Of a stretch of DNA of 64,000 nt, positions 1 to 6,481 are shown piece by piece (positions within the stretch are counted from its first letter, which is position 1; every line of letters begins with the position of its first letter). The notes beneath the pieces were generated by a model. That model searched no databases, was not told the DNA's origin, and saw only the letters and a list, made by a program, of their open reading frames with translations. The translations under genes were made by a program, and so were the position numbers. This DNA is from Chitinophaga pinensis (GTDB lineage Bacteria > Bacteroidota > Bacteroidia > UKL13-3): contig CAMBSD010000003.1 of NCBI GenBank assembly GCA_945870425.1, positions 186,001 to 250,000 of the forward strand, written 5' to 3'.

Positions 1-143
1 GAAATTTGTCCATTTCCACAAGCGCAATCCCATGCCAGTTGCCTTTCTTTGCAATGAGAAAATATCTCTTGAATCAAACTTTGAGGGTAGCTAGGTCGAT
101 ACTTAGCATATAAGTCAGCTTGATTTGAGAAATTGTCTTTCAC
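1..143 (-). CDS. Class I SAM-dependent methyltransferase, N-terminal part (runs off the window)
   Basis: Reading leftwards from a GTG at 143-141, the minus strand stays open to the window edge for 47 codons. The product has FSNQADLYAKYRPSYP near its start and then DCACGNGQ, which is motif I (D-x-x-x-G-x-G) of Rossmann-fold SAM-dependent methyltransferases. The YAxYRPSYP segment just before motif I is typical of small-molecule methyltransferases of the UbiE/trans-aconitate type; substrate unknown. The GTG overlaps the pepT stop (TAGTG on the minus strand), so the two genes are probably co-transcribed and translationally coupled. Only the first third or less of a normal-length protein is visible. 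Confidence 0.8.
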   Translation of the reverse strand, partial: MKDNFSNQADLYAKYRPSYPQSLIQEIFSHCKERQLAWDCACGNGQI

Positions 144-1396
144 TATTTTTTCTCCTCCCACACTTGCACCAAATTCACTAACACTTCCACTGCTTTTTGC
201 ATGTCTTGAACACTCACATATTCCATTTTGCTATGAATAGCCATTTCACCTGTAAAAATATTAGGACAAGGTAATCCCATAAAAGATAATCTTGAGCCAT
301 CTGTACCTCCACGTATATTCATTATTTCAGGCTCAATTCCAGATCTTCGATATGCTTCGCCAGCATTTGCCATTACTTGAGGGAATTGGTCTAACATCTC
401 TTTCATATTGCGATATTGCTCAACTACCTTCATGTCAAATGTGGCTCCAGGAAATTTATCAACGGCTTTTTTTGCCAAATTTGCCAACCTGTTTTCATAT
501 ATGGAAAGGTTTGAAGTTTCAAAATCTCTAACAATGAATTGAACATAGCACTGCTCCAATCCGCCTTGGGTGTGAACGGGATGTACAAAGCCTTCATAGC
601 CTTCAGTGGCTTCTGGGCACCATGTATCACTTGGTAGTAAGTCCATAAAATAGGCTGCGACTTTTTGCGCATTTACCATTTTATTTTTTGCATAACCTGG
701 ATGAGCGCTCACTCCAGTAAATGTTATGGTGCAAGCATCTGCCGAAAAGCTTTCACCTTCCAACATGCCTCTTTCGCCACCATCAAGGGTATATCCAAAA
801 TCTGCGTTGAGCTTTTGCATATCCACTTTGTTCACACCTCTACCAATTTCCTCATCTGGGGTAAATAGAATGCGGATTTTACCATGCTTAATTTCGGGGT
901 GTTGCAAAATGTAATTAGCAAAATCCATGATTATAGCCACACCTGCTTTATCATCAGCTCCAAGCAAGGTTTTGCCGCTAGCTGTGATAATATCATCACC
1001 AATACGTTCTGATAAGTAAGGGTGCTTTTGACTTGAAATAACAACTGAATTATCATCAGGTAGAACAATATCGCTTCCATCCCAAGCCTTATGAAGTATT
1101 GGTTTTACATCTGTTCCACTGCAATCAGGGGCGGTATCCACATGAGAGCAGAAGCAAATAACAGGTGTTTGATTGTCTGAATTGGCTTCAATCGTAGCAT
1201 AAACATAGCCATGCTCATCTAATTCAGCATCTAATATACCTATTTGCTTTAGCTCTTCAACAAGCAATCTGCTTAAATCCTTTTGCTTCATGCTTGATGG
1301 CTGAGTGTTTGATTCTGGGTCAGCAGTAGTGTCTATTTGCACATAACGCATTAATCGTTCGGCAACAGTGTGTTTATAATGGTCGATTAATGGCAT
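143..1396 (-). CDS. pepT: Peptidase T (tripeptide aminopeptidase)
   Basis: 417 residues, the usual length of PepT. It is a cytosolic M20 di-zinc aminopeptidase that removes the N-terminal residue of tripeptides. Visible metal and catalytic motifs in order: SHVDTAPD (H-x-D, about residue 85), LGADDKAG (bridging Asp, about 145), TPDEEIGRG (general-base and metal-binding Glu pair, about 180), DGGERG, HPGYAKNK (dimerisation-domain His, about 235) and RGGTDGSRLSFMG near the C-terminus (about 365). The start ATG follows an AT-rich leader without a Shine-Dalgarno sequence. It is followed without a gap by the partial methyltransferase gene. No oddities seen. Confidence 0.97.
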   Translation of the reverse strand: MPLIDHYKHTVAERLMRYVQIDTTADPESNTQPSSMKQKDLSRLLVEELKQIGILDAELDEHGYVYATIEANSDNQTPVICFCSHVDTAPDCSGTDVKPILHKAWDGSDIVLPDDNSVVISSQKHPYLSERIGDDIITASGKTLLGADDKAGVAIIMDFANYILQHPEIKHGKIRILFTPDEEIGRGVNKVDMQKLNADFGYTLDGGERGMLEGESFSADACTITFTGVSAHPGYAKNKMVNAQKVAAYFMDLLPSDTWCPEATEGYEGFVHPVHTQGGLEQCYVQFIVRDFETSNLSIYENRLANLAKKAVDKFPGATFDMKVVEQYRNMKEMLDQFPQVMANAGEAYRRSGIEPEIMNIRGGTDGSRLSFMGLPCPNIFTGEMAIHSKMEYVSVQDMQKAVEVLVNLVQVWEEKK

Positions 1397-1617
1397 CTGT
1401 TAAGAATTTGACCTGCAATATAATTATTGATTGGATAATGTTTTTTCAATTTGGGTTGACTTGCTCTATTATGGGAAAAAAACGGCATTTTATTTTTTTG
1501 TAAGTTCTTGAATATTATTTATATGCGATTTAGGTATGATTTAGGTAACAAATAAAGAAATCTTCAAACTTGGGGTTTAAGACAAAACAAAGGTTTAATC
1601 TTTTAAAACTAAACATT

Positions 1618-1701
1618 ATGTACGGACTAATCGTTAATGCGCAATTTGTAGTATTAAATGCTATAAAAGCGTTGTCAAAAACATTGAAGTTGTTTGTGTA
1701 A
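1618..1701 (+). CDS. Small peptide, 27 aa, member 1 of a tandem three-peptide family
   Basis: An ATG-started frame encodes a 27-residue hydrophobic and basic peptide beginning MYGLIVNAQ and ending KLFV. Ungapped comparison with the peptides at 1760 and 2006 gives shared M1, I5 and Q9, hydrophobic residues at 4, 19 and 23, and with the second also A8, L13, K17 and K21. The first five codons are almost the same DNA as those of the third peptide (13 of 15 bases). A strong intrinsic terminator lies 19 bases after the stop, so this could be a very short stand-alone transcript. The leader holds a direct repeat of ATTTAGGTA. Function unknown; the segment could form one amphipathic or membrane-associated helix. 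No clear promoter was found. Confidence 0.5.
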   Translation: MYGLIVNAQFVVLNAIKALSKTLKLFV

Positions 1702-1720
1702 AAACTTCAACACTAAGATA

Positions 1721-1747
1721 CTGCCGCATAAATGCGGCAGTTTTATT
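1721..1747 (+). terminator. Intrinsic terminator behind the first small peptide
   Basis: CTGCCGCA and TGCGGCAG form an 8-9 bp perfect GC-rich stem with a TAAA loop, followed by TTTTATT. It sits between two small peptide genes in an 850-base stretch with no longer gene, which argues that the short upstream frame is a real transcription unit. Confidence 0.8.
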
Positions 1748-1759
1748 AAACAAATAATT

Positions 1760-1885
1760 ATGAATACAATAATAGCCTTAGCACAACAAACACATTTAAG
1801 TCTAATGAAGACCTTGTTAAAGATTATTAGAGAACTTGATTCCAACACGAAGGATTTAAATAAAAACTCAAATCAAACTACCTAA
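1760..1885 (+). CDS. Small peptide, 41 aa, member 2 of a tandem three-peptide family
   Basis: The frame starts MNTIIALAQQTH and ends in a polar, asparagine- and threonine-rich tail. Residues 1-26 align without gaps with the two neighbouring small peptides (M1, I5, Q9 in all three; T11, H12, L15 shared with the third; A8, L13, K17, L19, K21 shared with the first). The pattern of a hydrophobic or amphipathic first half and a charged tail is seen also in the third peptide. The start follows the terminator of the first peptide by 13 bases. No recognised family. Confidence 0.45.
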   Translation: MNTIIALAQQTHLSLMKTLLKIIRELDSNTKDLNKNSNQTT

Positions 1886-1933
1886 ATTACTTGGTCTGAT
1901 AATCAGTCATTAATAATTTTGCCAAAAAAAGCA

Positions 1934-1964
1934 TTTGTTTGAAACGAAATGCTATTTACATTCG
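1934..1964 (+). promoter_or_regulatory. Candidate Bacteroidota promoter for the third small peptide
   Basis: TTTG at 1934-1937 is followed after 19 bases by TACATTCG at 1957-1964, one mismatch from the Bacteroidota -33/-7 consensus TTTG-N19-21-TAnnTTTG. The expected start of transcription is about 35 bases before the ATG at 2006. The same segment (1930-1953) also contains a weak hairpin AGCATTT/AAATGCT. Confidence 0.5.
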
Positions 1965-2005
1965 TCTATACAACCATACAAAACAATATTTAATCCATTT
2001 ATATT

Positions 2006-2131
2006 ATGTACGGCCTAATTACAATAATTCAAACTACGCATAAGAATTTAGTTTCAGGTATTATGCAATTTCTATACTACATAGATTTTGAAGAAAGTAA
2101 GCAGAGGCCAATCAAGCAATTTAAGTTCTAA
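2006..2131 (+). CDS. Small peptide, 41 aa, member 3 of a tandem three-peptide family
   Basis: The frame starts MYGLITIIQTTHKN and ends in a charged tail with EESKQRP and KQFKF. Its first five residues equal those of peptide 1 and it shares Q9, T11, H12 and L15 with peptide 2. It has a near-consensus promoter upstream. Like its neighbours it has no Shine-Dalgarno sequence but an AT-rich ATTATG start context that all three share. Family and function unknown. Confidence 0.5.
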   Translation: MYGLITIIQTTHKNLVSGIMQFLYYIDFEESKQRPIKQFKF

Positions 2132-2244
2132 TGTGAGAAATTAGGCTGGAAATTTTCCGCATTCGATATACCTCAAATTTCAGCGCTTCCTGAGTCATTC
2201 GTTTAATAGTTTAATCAAATGTGTATTATTGAATAAAAAATAAT

Positions 2245-3084
2245 ATGCAATTATATACTATTAATACAGGCTATTTTAAATTGGATGGGGGTGCCATGTT
2301 TGGCGTTGTTCCTAAAAGTATTTGGCATAAACTCAATCCTGCTGACGAGAATAACATGATCAAATTGGCCATGCGATGCCTTCTCATCCAAGATGGAAAA
2401 AGATTGATATTAATTGATAACGGAATAGGAGAGAAACAAGACTCGAAATTCTTTTCTCATTATTTTTTACATGGCGATGATAGTCTTGATAAGTCTCTCA
2501 AATTAAATGGATTTTCAGTTGATGATATTACAGATGTGATGTTGTCGCATTTGCATTTTGACCATTGTGGTGGCAGTGTAAGTTGGAATAATGATAGAAC
2601 GAAATTTCAAACTACTTTTAAAAATGCCACCTATTGGATTGATGAAAAACATTGGGCCGAAAGTCAGGCTCCTAATCCACGTGAGAAAGCAAGTTTTTTG
2701 AAAGATAACATTTTACCAATACAAGAAAGCGGTCAATTAAAATTATTAAAACATGGTGAATTATTTCATCCAGAAATAGAATTGTTGTATTCAAATGGAC
2801 ATACCAACAACATGATTCATCCTGTCATTCCATATAAGAATTCAAAAGTGATTTATTTAGCAGATATGATTCCAACTACGGCTCATATACCTACATCCTA
2901 TGTGATGGGTTATGATGTTCGTCCACTGGACACCATGATTGAAAAGCAAAGGATATTAAAAATGGCTGCTGAAAATAATTACGTATTGTATTTTGAGCAT
3001 GACCCGTTCCATGAAGCTTGCACAGTTGAGCAAACTGAAAAGGGAATTAAATTAAAAGAGTCAATAAAACTGGAAGGCTTGTAA
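2245..3084 (+). CDS. Metallo-beta-lactamase fold hydrolase
   Basis: 279 residues, cytosolic (no signal peptide). The zinc-binding signature SHLHFDHCGG (H-x-H-x-D-H) lies at about residue 104, a further metal His follows in NGHTNNM (about 188), the bridging Asp in LADMIP (about 211) and a last His in FEHDPFH (about 252). These are all the ligands of a di-nuclear MBL-fold enzyme. The overall plan (long N-terminal part before the HxHxDH motif, VVPKxIW segment) resembles the YtnP/lactonase-like branch of the superfamily, which includes N-acyl-homoserine lactonases, but the substrate cannot be read from sequence. It stands alone, with an AT-rich leader. Confidence 0.88.
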   Translation: MQLYTINTGYFKLDGGAMFGVVPKSIWHKLNPADENNMIKLAMRCLLIQDGKRLILIDNGIGEKQDSKFFSHYFLHGDDSLDKSLKLNGFSVDDITDVMLSHLHFDHCGGSVSWNNDRTKFQTTFKNATYWIDEKHWAESQAPNPREKASFLKDNILPIQESGQLKLLKHGELFHPEIELLYSNGHTNNMIHPVIPYKNSKVIYLADMIPTTAHIPTSYVMGYDVRPLDTMIEKQRILKMAAENNYVLYFEHDPFHEACTVEQTEKGIKLKESIKLEGL

Positions 3085-3157
3085 TTTTTAAAAATTATTT
3101 TTTCGATATCTTAAACTATTTTGTTTTAATTTGCTCATAGATAAAATTAAAAAGCGT

Positions 3158-4873
3158 ATGTCGAAACTAAAACGTAGGCAATTTCTTCAAGAGGCCGCTT
3201 CAGCTTTGCTTTCTGATGATTCTCATTCATCAAACCTAAATTATATTGATTATTCTAATAAAACCTTACCTACTCAGCTAGGTAAAGCCTCAACAGGTCT
3301 TAGCGAGTATAAAGGAGCATTCGGAGAATCAGAAATATTACACCTATGCAGAAGAACTTTATTTGGCGTTAAAAAGTCGGATGTTGATTTTTTTAAAACC
3401 AAAAGCATGAGCGATGCTGTTGATTACATATTAAATATTAATGCTGCTGAGCCAAGTTTCCCAATAAATCATTACAGTACAAATGCTAACTTTCCTGATA
3501 CGGAGGTACCATACGGTCAAACATGGGTAAATGCAGCTTTAAATGGCAATCTTAACGCTGCTAGAATTCAATCATTTAAAGCTTGGTGGATTAGTTTGAT
3601 GTTAAACCAAGATAGAAATATTCGAGAAAAAATGACCTTGTTCTGGCATAATCATTTTGCCACTGAAACCAATGTGGTTAAAGATGCACGTTATGTTTTT
3701 AAAAACAACAGTCTAATAAGAACAAATTGTTTGGGTGACTTTAAAGCTTTGGTTTATGCCATTTCAACTGACCCCGCTATGTTGGTTTATTTAAATGGAG
3801 AACAAAACAATAAAACTTCACCAGATGAAAACTTTGGTCGTGAGTTACAAGAATTGTTTACAGTAGGTAAGGATTTACCTAACCATTATACCGAAGATGA
3901 TGTGAAAATGGCCGCTAAGGTTATGACGGGTTGGAGAAATAATGCAGTAAATATTTCTTCATATTTCGATTCAGTTAAACACGACACAAGCAATAAACAA
4001 TTCTCTTCGTTTTACAACAACACAATAATTACAGGAAGGTCTGGAGCGACAGCTGGATCTCAGGAGTTGAATGATTTGATAAACATGATTTTTGCACAAG
4101 AGGAAGTATCAAAATTCATTTGTCGAAAAATTTATAGATACTTTATCTATTATGTAATTGACGAAACAGTTGAACTTAATGTAATTCAACCTTTGGCAAA
4201 AATTTTCAGAGATAACAATTATCAAATTGCTCCCGTATTAAGTGCACTCTTTAAAAGTGAGCATTTTTATGACGTATTAAATAGGGGTTGTATAATTAAA
4301 CAACCTATGGATTATTTGATAGGTATGAGCAGACAATTTAATTTGCAATTTCCAGATGGTACCAATCCTCTTCAAACATACACCCATTGGGCTTATGTGC
4401 AACAAATAGGATTAGCGCTTGGTCAAGACATAGGCGATCCTCCAAATGTGGCCGGATGGCCGGCCTTTTATGAAGACCCACAATACTATGAACTATGGAT
4501 AAATTCTGATTCGCTACCTAAGCGCAACCAAATTTGTGATGGACTTAATTATGTTGGTTTTAATAGGCAAAACTTTAAGTTGATATTTGATTTAATTGCC
4601 TTTGCACAACAGTTCAATACACCTGAGGATCCTGATGCTTTGGTAGCACAAATTACCAATTTGCTCTATGGAATTGATATTTCACAGACAACCAAAAATG
4701 GATTAAAAACTTCTTTTCTACTATCTGGTCAATCGAGTGATCATTATTGGACAGATGCTTGGAATGCTTATTTAGCTGCTCCAACGGATGCATCTAAAAA
4801 ATCAATTGTAAACACCCGCTTGCAAGCCTTAATTAAATATGTGTGTGGTCAAGCTGAACATCAACTTTGTTAA
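3158..4873 (+). CDS. DUF1800 family protein
   Basis: 571 residues from the ATG at 3158; a TTG nine codons upstream (3131) is possible but less likely because the ATG gives MSKLKRRQFLQEA, a twin-arginine-like N-terminus as in its partner. The body has features of DUF1800 (PF08811): LCRRTLFG, REKMTLFWHNHFATE (about residue 165), ENFGRELQELFTVG (about 230), MTGWR, FICRKIYRYF, and GDPPNVAGWPAF near the C-terminus. DUF1800 and DUF1501 genes are almost always paired in Bacteroidota and Planctomycetes. The pair is predicted to act outside the cytoplasm; the biochemical role is unknown. The DUF1501 gene follows after 21 bases, so this is an operon. Confidence 0.92.
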   Translation: MSKLKRRQFLQEAASALLSDDSHSSNLNYIDYSNKTLPTQLGKASTGLSEYKGAFGESEILHLCRRTLFGVKKSDVDFFKTKSMSDAVDYILNINAAEPSFPINHYSTNANFPDTEVPYGQTWVNAALNGNLNAARIQSFKAWWISLMLNQDRNIREKMTLFWHNHFATETNVVKDARYVFKNNSLIRTNCLGDFKALVYAISTDPAMLVYLNGEQNNKTSPDENFGRELQELFTVGKDLPNHYTEDDVKMAAKVMTGWRNNAVNISSYFDSVKHDTSNKQFSSFYNNTIITGRSGATAGSQELNDLINMIFAQEEVSKFICRKIYRYFIYYVIDETVELNVIQPLAKIFRDNNYQIAPVLSALFKSEHFYDVLNRGCIIKQPMDYLIGMSRQFNLQFPDGTNPLQTYTHWAYVQQIGLALGQDIGDPPNVAGWPAFYEDPQYYELWINSDSLPKRNQICDGLNYVGFNRQNFKLIFDLIAFAQQFNTPEDPDALVAQITNLLYGIDISQTTKNGLKTSFLLSGQSSDHYWTDAWNAYLAAPTDASKKSIVNTRLQALIKYVCGQAEHQLC

Positions 4874-4894
4874 TCAATAAATCAATTCGAGATT

Positions 4895-6481
4895 ATGAAA
4901 AGAAGAGATTTTTTAAGTAAAAGTATATTGGCAGGAGTAAGTCCTGTTTTGATTAATGGATGGTCGGTGAAAGCATTGGCAGAAAATCCATTGGTGCAAT
5001 TTTTAAACAAATCGGGTAACGAAGACCGAGTATTTGTGCTAATACAATTAAATGGAGGTAATGATGGATTAAATACCTTAATACCTATCGACCAATACAG
5101 CAACTTAAGCAATGCACGCTCAAATATTCTGATTCAAGAGAACAAGGTGTTATCCTTGAGCGGTAACTCAGCCACAGGATTGCATCCTGCTATGAGCGAA
5201 ATGAGAGGTATGTATGATAATGGCTTATTGTCAATTGTTCAAAGTGTAGGTTATCCCAATCCTGATTTCTCACATTTCAGGGCTACAGATATTTGGTTGA
5301 CTGGCGCCAACTCAAATCAAAGTTTAGAAACGGGTTGGATGGGTAGATACCTTGACACGAAGTATCCAAATTATCCAACTAACTATCCGAATTCTAGTTT
5401 CCCTGACCCTCCTGCAATACAGATTGGCGCATTGGTTTCTCCCGCTTTACAAGGCAGCTCAACCTCGCTTGGTATGTCAATAACAGACCCAACAAGTTTT
5501 TATCAATTTGTGAGTGGAACGGTTGATACTGCGCCTAATACTCCTGCTGGGCATGAGCTAACTTACCTGCGATTGGTGGCACAACAAACACAAGCCTATT
5601 CGGGTTCAATAAAAAATGCTGCAACTAAAAATTCGCCTGCAAACAAATCAACCTTATATCCAACAGCTGGGCAAAACTCTTTAGCTGACCAATTAAAAAT
5701 AGTAGCGCAATTGATAGCTGGCGGTTTAAAAACTAAGGTTTATGTTGTAAATCTTGGTGGGTTTGATACACACTCGGTTCAAGTAGCAGCCACTGGAGGT
5801 ACTGAGACTGGCGCTCATGCGACATTGCTCCAAAAGATATCGCAAGCGGTGAATGCCTTTCAAGATGACCTTAAACAATTTGCTTTGCAAGATCGTGTCA
5901 TGGGTATGACTTTTTCTGAATTTGGAAGACGTATAAAATCGAATTCAAGTTTAGGAACAGACCATGGAGCTGCAGCCCCATTGTTCATTTTTGGAAGTAA
6001 AGTGAATGGAGGTATTTATGGTACAAACCCAATCATCCCATCAAGTGTATCTGTAAATGACAATGTGCCCATGCAGTTTGATTTTAGACAAATTTACGCT
6101 ACCATACTTAAGAATTGGTTTGAAGTGAGTGATGCTGATACCAACAGTATTTTGTTAAAGCAATACCAAACACTCAACTTTATTAATGCCAATGCTAGTG
6201 GCATAACCGAAGTAAAATCAGCCGAGATTGGTTTCATTGAAAACTACCCTAATCCTGCTTCAACATCCACCAACATAAGGTTTGCTTGCAGTGAAGGTCA
6301 TGTAAAGATAAAATTATATGATGGAATAGGACGAGAAATATTGACCATTAACGAGGCAAACTATAGCAGAGGAACGCATGAAGTAAGCCTTGATGTAAGC
6401 TCTTTACAGAATGGAAACTATTACTACCAAGTGCAGAGCGAAGATAGGCAAATGATGAAAACCTTGGTGGTGGCAAAGTAA
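4895..6481 (+). CDS. DUF1501 protein with T9SS type A sorting domain
   Basis: 528 residues. The N-terminus MKRRDFLSKSILAGVSP is a twin-arginine-like signal. The core matches DUF1501, a sulfatase/alkaline-phosphatase-fold family: VFVLIQLNGGNDGLNTLIP (residues 45-65), DFSHFRATDIW (about 128), GGFDTH (about 288) and FSEFGRRIKSN with TDHGAAAP (about 345-360). The last 75 residues, from ENYPNPAST through LYDGIGREI to YYYQVQSEDRQMMKTLVVAK, are a type A C-terminal sorting domain recognised by the type IX secretion system. The protein should therefore be exported through the outer membrane and attached at the surface or released. It forms an operon with the DUF1800 gene upstream. Confidence 0.93.
   Translation: MKRRDFLSKSILAGVSPVLINGWSVKALAENPLVQFLNKSGNEDRVFVLIQLNGGNDGLNTLIPIDQYSNLSNARSNILIQENKVLSLSGNSATGLHPAMSEMRGMYDNGLLSIVQSVGYPNPDFSHFRATDIWLTGANSNQSLETGWMGRYLDTKYPNYPTNYPNSSFPDPPAIQIGALVSPALQGSSTSLGMSITDPTSFYQFVSGTVDTAPNTPAGHELTYLRLVAQQTQAYSGSIKNAATKNSPANKSTLYPTAGQNSLADQLKIVAQLIAGGLKTKVYVVNLGGFDTHSVQVAATGGTETGAHATLLQKISQAVNAFQDDLKQFALQDRVMGMTFSEFGRRIKSNSSLGTDHGAAAPLFIFGSKVNGGIYGTNPIIPSSVSVNDNVPMQFDFRQIYATILKNWFEVSDADTNSILLKQYQTLNFINANASGITEVKSAEIGFIENYPNPASTSTNIRFACSEGHVKIKLYDGIGREILTINEANYSRGTHEVSLDVSSLQNGNYYYQVQSEDRQMMKTLVVAK

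What the first reader, a model, noticed from the sequence alone, without database searches (positions are those of the whole stretch)
1618..2131. Three tandem, related micropeptides (27, 41, 41 aa) with their own terminator and promoter
In a stretch with no normal gene, three ATG frames on the same strand align without gaps over their first 23-26 residues (M1, I5, Q9 in all; L/I at 4, 19 and 23; MYGLI shared by 1 and 3; Q-x-T-H by 2 and 3; A-Q, L13, K17, L19, K21 by 1 and 2). The starts of 1 and 3 agree in 13 of 15 bases. A GC-rich terminator follows peptide 1, and a near-consensus TTTG-N19-TACATTCG precedes peptide 3. Hydrophobic or amphipathic first halves with charged tails would fit type I toxin-like, membrane-active or signalling peptides. 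This is a possible undescribed family.
Basis: partly seen in the sequence, partly recalled or inferred. Interest (0 to 1): 0.62.

Follow-up and report, generated by a model that had tools for sequence, protein, structure and literature searches.

The report
Genus-restricted family of amphipathic micropeptides
Three overlooked tiny genes lie side by side here, a fourth relative sits elsewhere in the genome, and a second species keeps all four protein sequences unchanged while their silent bases drift, so they are almost certainly made as small helical peptides of unknown function, found in only one bacterial genus.

Summary
The three small frames lie at the stated places in an 848-base gap between a peptidase T gene and a YtnP-like lactonase-fold gene, and their start-anchored similarity exceeds shuffles. 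A fourth paralogue (MYGLIVNAQLTYHSLIRLFTVKLKSVYSIIF) lies elsewhere in the genome, 30 bases after a LruC-domain gene. A second species of the genus keeps all four peptides at 100% amino-acid identity. All seven substitutions are silent, one of them TAA to TAG at a stop, while neighbouring genes have dS of 0.20-0.29. Of 27 intergenic small frames in about 85 kb of aligned DNA, only these three loci-with-changes (pep1, pep3, pep4) show silent changes without any replacement; pep2 is unchanged. Translation under purifying selection is therefore very likely. No relative was found in 62 other genomes of the family, in samples of the class and phylum, in viral contigs, or in four profile libraries. 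The shared part is a roughly 24-residue, mostly cationic amphipathic helix (MYGLIxxxQ) with variable tails. My best mechanism, inferred only, is a cytoplasmic amphipathic helix acting at the inner membrane surface. No antisense RNA, export or maturation genes support a toxin or signalling reading. New small family of a known kind.

The parts
1618..1701 (+). micropeptide 1, MYGLIVNAQFVVLNAIKALSKTLKLFV (27 aa)
   Evidence: identical protein in G001, one silent change; shares MYGLIVNAQ with peptide 4
1760..1885 (+). micropeptide 2, MNTIIALAQQTHLSLMKTLLKIIRELDSNTKDLNKNSNQTT (41 aa), most divergent member
   Evidence: DNA identical in G001, so no codon test of its own; similarity to 1, 3 and 4 above shuffles
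2006..2131 (+). micropeptide 3, MYGLITIIQTTHKNLVSGIMQFLYYIDFEESKQRPIKQFKF (41 aa)
   Evidence: identical protein in G001, two changes, one silent and one TAA to TAG stop
1720..1741 (+). intrinsic terminator of peptide 1
   Evidence: found by scan, 0.3 expected; stem and T-run kept in G001 although the linker diverges by 24%
1930..1953 (.). hairpin flanked by A-run and T-run, possible two-way terminator after peptide 2
   Evidence: weak in G000 (z -0.7), stronger in G001 (z -2.5)
1934..1964 (+). candidate promoter of peptide 3, TTTG-N19-TACATTCG
   Evidence: 9 of 10 sigma-ABfr positions; background 0.5 per kb per strand; the -7 box is unchanged in G001
1497..1527 (+). candidate promoter of peptide 1, TTTG-N19-TATATGCG
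   Evidence: 8 of 10; background 2.6 per kb per strand, so weak
2201..2244 (+). conserved leader of the MBL-fold gene, probably its own promoter
   Evidence: 0 changes in 44 bases against 13% in the linker 2132-2200; 8 of 10 promoter match at 2202/2224

Best explanation
These are real small genes: a family of four paralogous 27-41-residue peptides, three in tandem here and one at a second locus, found in only one genus of Bacteroidota, where they probably arose and were duplicated. Each has its own start and stop; peptides 1 and 4 have an obvious terminator. The conserved part is the first roughly 24 residues (M-Y-G-L-I-x-x-x-Q in three of four, then a mostly cationic amphipathic helix); the C-terminal tails vary. 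Inferred mechanism: with no signal peptide and hydrophobicity below a classical transmembrane segment, each peptide stays in the cytoplasm as an amphipathic helix lying on the inner face of the membrane or on a membrane protein, tuning it as small-protein regulators do, or depolarising it when overproduced as TisB-like peptides do. Shown: presence, paralogy, conservation of frames, silent-only substitution, terminators. Inferred: translation level, membrane binding, function. That the frames are coding I hold at about 0.95; the confidence given here is for the mechanism as well.
For: Coding: 7 of 7 substitutions silent and none among about 341 nonsynonymous sites, against dS 0.20-0.29 in neighbours; chance that all seven are silent about 2e-4. 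In the control, of 27 intergenic small frames only pep1, pep3 and pep4 have silent changes and no replacement, and pep2 has no change. Paralogy: pep1 and pep4 share MYGLIVNAQ through 3-5 silent and 0 replacement codon differences; the fourth member was found by search, not chosen. Own units: terminators kept as structures although their sequence drifts. Helix: AlphaFold2 residues 2-33 of pep3. Amphipathic moment of the 24-residue core above shuffles for pep1, 2 and 3 (p 0.007-0.03); core charge +3, +3, +1, +3; highest 19-residue mean hydropathy 0.7-1.4.
Against: Only two genomes carry the family, so conservation covers one species pair. Low nucleotide divergence by itself is not special: several other intergenic stretches in this pair diverge by less than 1%. 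The silent-change evidence rests on seven substitutions, four of them in pep4; pep2 has none. Nothing tests membrane binding; the helix model comes from a 4-row alignment; pep4's core moment is not above chance (p 0.2). No expression data.
Confidence: 0.45

Rival explanations
1. Type I toxin-like system: membrane-damaging peptides held back by an antisense or cis RNA, several tandem copies as in Ldr or Ibs.
For: Size, amphipathic cationic core, tandem and dispersed paralogues, own small transcription units; a minus-strand reading of hairpin 1930-1953 ends in seven T, as the end of an antisense RNA might.
Against: Only one minus-strand promoter match (8 of 10, within pep2, 1821/1798) at background rate, none near pep3; no similarity to known toxins in Pfam, NCBIfam or PADLOC; two members have long polar tails.
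Confidence: 0.17
2. Soluble partner peptides: the helix (heptad-like spacing I5, 8/9, 12, 15/16, 19, 23) binds a protein partner rather than the membrane.
For: Hydrophobic positions spaced as in a coiled-coil face; conserved polar Q9.
Against: No shared neighbour at the two loci that would be the partner.
Confidence: 0.17
3. Secreted or signalling peptides (phenol-soluble-modulin-like, or precursor of a modified peptide) with a conserved leader and variable core.
For: Conserved N-terminus with variable C-terminus in tandem paralogues; amphipathic.
Against: No exporter, protease or modifying enzyme beside either locus; no double-glycine leader or cysteines.
Confidence: 0.1
4. Leader peptides or upstream ORFs controlling a neighbour in cis; pep3 could lead the MBL-fold gene.
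For: pep3 lies 113 bases upstream of the MBL gene with no terminator between (z +1.1).
Against: pep4 lies after, not before, a gene and is followed by a terminator and a convergent gene; the MBL gene has its own fully conserved 44-base upstream stretch; no run of one codon.
Confidence: 0.08
5. Noncoding DNA or RNA conserved for other reasons; the frames are chance.
For: The whole gap diverges by only 3.2%, ordinary for intergenic DNA in this pair.
Against: Silent-only changes, TAA to TAG stop exchange, silent differences between paralogues.
Confidence: 0.03

Closest known systems
TisB-like and other small amphipathic or hydrophobic type I toxins (from own knowledge)
   Same: About 30 residues, amphipathic helix, no signal peptide, stand-alone small mRNA
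   Different: No sequence similarity, no antisense RNA detected, longer polar tails in two members
Membrane-associated small-protein regulators such as MgtS, SgrT and AcrZ (from own knowledge)
   Same: Tiny, intergenic, lineage-restricted, helical
   Different: No partner known here; four paralogues in one genome; not a clear transmembrane helix
Phenol-soluble modulins of staphylococci (amphipathic alpha-helical peptides; PMC4235685, PMC5052566, abstracts)
   Same: Short leaderless amphipathic helices encoded as paralogues
   Different: No sequence relation, no dedicated exporter seen beside the genes, Gram-negative host
Small ORFs predicted in the B. thetaiotaomicron transcriptome (409 predicted; PMC7366714)
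   Same: Unannotated short frames in Bacteroidota, promoters of the TTTG / TAnnTTTG type
   Different: A prediction set in one species; here there is substitution evidence for translation and a paralogous family

Membership tests
translated micropeptide (small protein) family | start, stop and frame kept between species, only silent changes | tested here: met
   7 of 7 substitutions silent, none nonsynonymous, against a 27-frame control; pep2 unchanged, so not testable alone
translated micropeptide (small protein) family | homologous members beyond one locus | tested here: met
   fourth member at G000:C17 and G001:C158
translated micropeptide (small protein) family | presence beyond one genus | tested here: not met
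   0 of 62 other family genomes; no credible hit in 394 class and 394 phylum genomes. Not required of a lineage-restricted family, but limits the claim
translated micropeptide (small protein) family | translation observed | not testable with these tools
   no Ribo-seq or proteomics available
type I toxin-antitoxin | antisense or adjacent RNA antitoxin | tested here: inconclusive
   only one background-level minus-strand promoter match; one hairpin with T-run on the minus strand
type I toxin-antitoxin | toxicity on expression | not testable with these tools
   needs experiment
any family in Pfam, NCBIfam, PHROGs or PADLOC | profile match | tested here: not met
   no match; only phrog_33318 (unknown function) at E 0.2 with pep2
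modified or exported peptide precursor | neighbouring maturation or export genes | tested here: not met
   neighbours are pepT, MBL-fold hydrolase, DUF1800/DUF1501; at the second locus a LruC-domain protein and a protein without Pfam match
attenuator leader or uORF | leader directly upstream of a regulated gene on one transcript | tested here: inconclusive
   arrangement possible for pep3 only; pep4 follows its gene and precedes a terminator

The most novel reading that the evidence does not exclude
A new, genus-born family of membrane-active micropeptides, duplicated in tandem, with a fixed N-terminal motif (MYGLIxxxQ) and diversified tails, acting as toxin-like or signalling peptides in Bacteroidota through a partner or control system not yet described.
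Probability: 0.22. Interest if true: 0.6.

Novelty: new member of a known kind. Interest (0 to 1): 0.42.

Why it matters
Small proteins are missed by annotation, and few in environmental Bacteroidota have any evolutionary support. Here four unannotated genes in one genome form a family with codon-level evidence, in a lineage where the family seems to have arisen recently. It is a compact case for asking how new micropeptides are born, duplicated and fixed, and what genus-restricted amphipathic peptides do.

Tried and rejected
A looser pattern M-x-x-[LIMFV-like]-I-x-x-x-Q across both genomes gave 126 and 97 hits, of which the first are listed; none of those listed and inspected, beyond the four, was a convincing new member, and MDQMIFNAQ looks like the start of a longer gene. 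pepT orthologues in the other family genomes fetched, the MBL gene in three other named MAGs, and those LruC-domain loci whose gene end could be located have no micropeptide beside them. Weak profile hits elsewhere (G432, G094, G647) lie inside large frames or in AT-rich DNA without a start codon. Viral contigs, phages and plasmids: nothing; PDB: nothing meaningful (41). Rfam: only one tRNA in the window. Extra nucleotide-level constraint at this locus was considered, but baseline intergenic divergence in this species pair is broad (0 to 24%), so no claim is made. The first alignment with L002 used the wrong part of the locus and was replaced.

Full report
What is there. The window lies in genome G000, contig 3, of a Bacteroidota. 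Between pepT (143-1396, minus strand; peptidase T) and a metallo-beta-lactamase-fold hydrolase nearest to the YtnP lactonase model but below its cut-off (2245-3084, plus) is an 848-base gap with no ordinary gene. Shuffling residues 2-24 while keeping M1 gives pairwise p values of 1e-4 to 1e-3, and none of 20000 shuffles reaches the three-way score.

A fourth member. A DNA search with the gap found the congener G001 at 96% identity and also a 42-base match elsewhere in G001. That match is the start of a 31-residue frame, MYGLIVNAQLTYHSLIRLFTVKLKSVYSIIF, 30 bases after a LruC-domain gene and followed by a strong terminator. The same peptide is in G000 on contig 17, 7630-7725, minus strand. Peptide 1 and peptide 4 share their first nine residues through 3 to 5 silent codon differences and no replacement. 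This turns a local resemblance into a dispersed family.

Codon-level evidence. Between G000 and G001 peptide 1 has one change (silent), peptide 2 none, peptide 3 two (one silent, one TAA to TAG at the stop), peptide 4 four (all silent). None of about 341 nonsynonymous sites changed, while pepT, the MBL gene and the LruC gene have dS 0.20-0.29 and dN 0.015-0.030. With a transition-biased spectrum the chance that seven random changes are all silent is about 2e-4. As control, eight stretch pairs of the two genomes were aligned (about 85 kb, target loci included). Among 27 intergenic small frames of 24-80 residues, the three with silent changes and no replacement are peptides 4, 3 and 1; peptide 2 and two unrelated frames have no change at all. 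Overall intergenic divergence in this pair varies from 0 to 24%, and the gap as a whole (3.2%) is ordinary, so low divergence alone would not have been evidence.

Anatomy of the units. A terminator follows peptide 1 (1720-1741); its linker diverges by 24% but the G001 version folds even better, so structure outlives sequence. A weaker, two-way terminator-like hairpin follows peptide 2 (1930-1953). A sigma-ABfr-type promoter match (consensus TTTG and TAnnTTTG, PMC7366714) precedes peptide 3 (9 of 10) and a weaker one precedes peptide 1 (8 of 10); background rates of 0.5 and 2.6 per kb per strand make these suggestions only. The 44 bases directly upstream of the MBL gene are unchanged in G001 and contain a promoter-like match, while the linker after peptide 3 diverges by 13%, which suggests that the MBL gene has its own promoter.

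Distribution. The pattern MYGLIxxxQ and profiles of the four peptides find the family only in G000 and G001: none in the 62 other genomes held for the taxonomic family, none credible in samples of 394 class and 394 phylum genomes. Orthologues of pepT, the MBL gene and LruC genes that could be inspected in other genera lack the peptides. There is no match in viral contigs, phages, plasmids or four profile libraries.

What it probably does. AlphaFold2 gives one helix over residues 2-33 of peptide 3, mean pLDDT 77. The first 24 residues are significantly amphipathic in peptides 1, 2 and 3 but not 4, carry core charges of +3, +3, +1 and +3, and stay below transmembrane hydropathy. No signal peptide, exporter, modifying enzyme or shared neighbour is seen. 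The reading that fits best is a cytoplasmic amphipathic helix acting on the inner membrane surface or on a membrane protein; toxin-like action, a soluble partner, secretion and leader functions remain open with lower weight. This part is inference, and the confidence of 0.45 is for it; that the frames are real coding genes I hold at about 0.95.

Verdict. It is a new lineage-restricted micropeptide family, of a known kind.

Noticed in passing
window 2245-3084: The MBL-fold protein matches the NCBIfam YtnP quorum-quenching lactonase model at E 6.5e-60 but with 203 bits against a cut-off of 425: a distant relative.
   Followed up: partly
window 3155-6481: Adjacent DUF1800 and DUF1501 genes, the second with a Por secretion C-terminal sorting domain.
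   Followed up: no
L237:10949-11032, minus strand (G000 contig 3): Another intergenic small frame, MKKIGLIILAFCVLIAMEACKGSCPKF, with 5 silent and 1 replacement change between the two species: probably a real small lipoprotein.
   Followed up: no
L231:11726-11845 (G000 contig 16): A 39-residue intergenic frame with identical DNA in both species, in a stretch with 0.8% divergence; coding status undecided.
   Followed up: no
L169:7756-9804 and G000 contigs 5, 15, 23: Several paralogous LruC-domain (DUF4842) genes per genome in this family, up to ten matches in some relatives.
   Followed up: no
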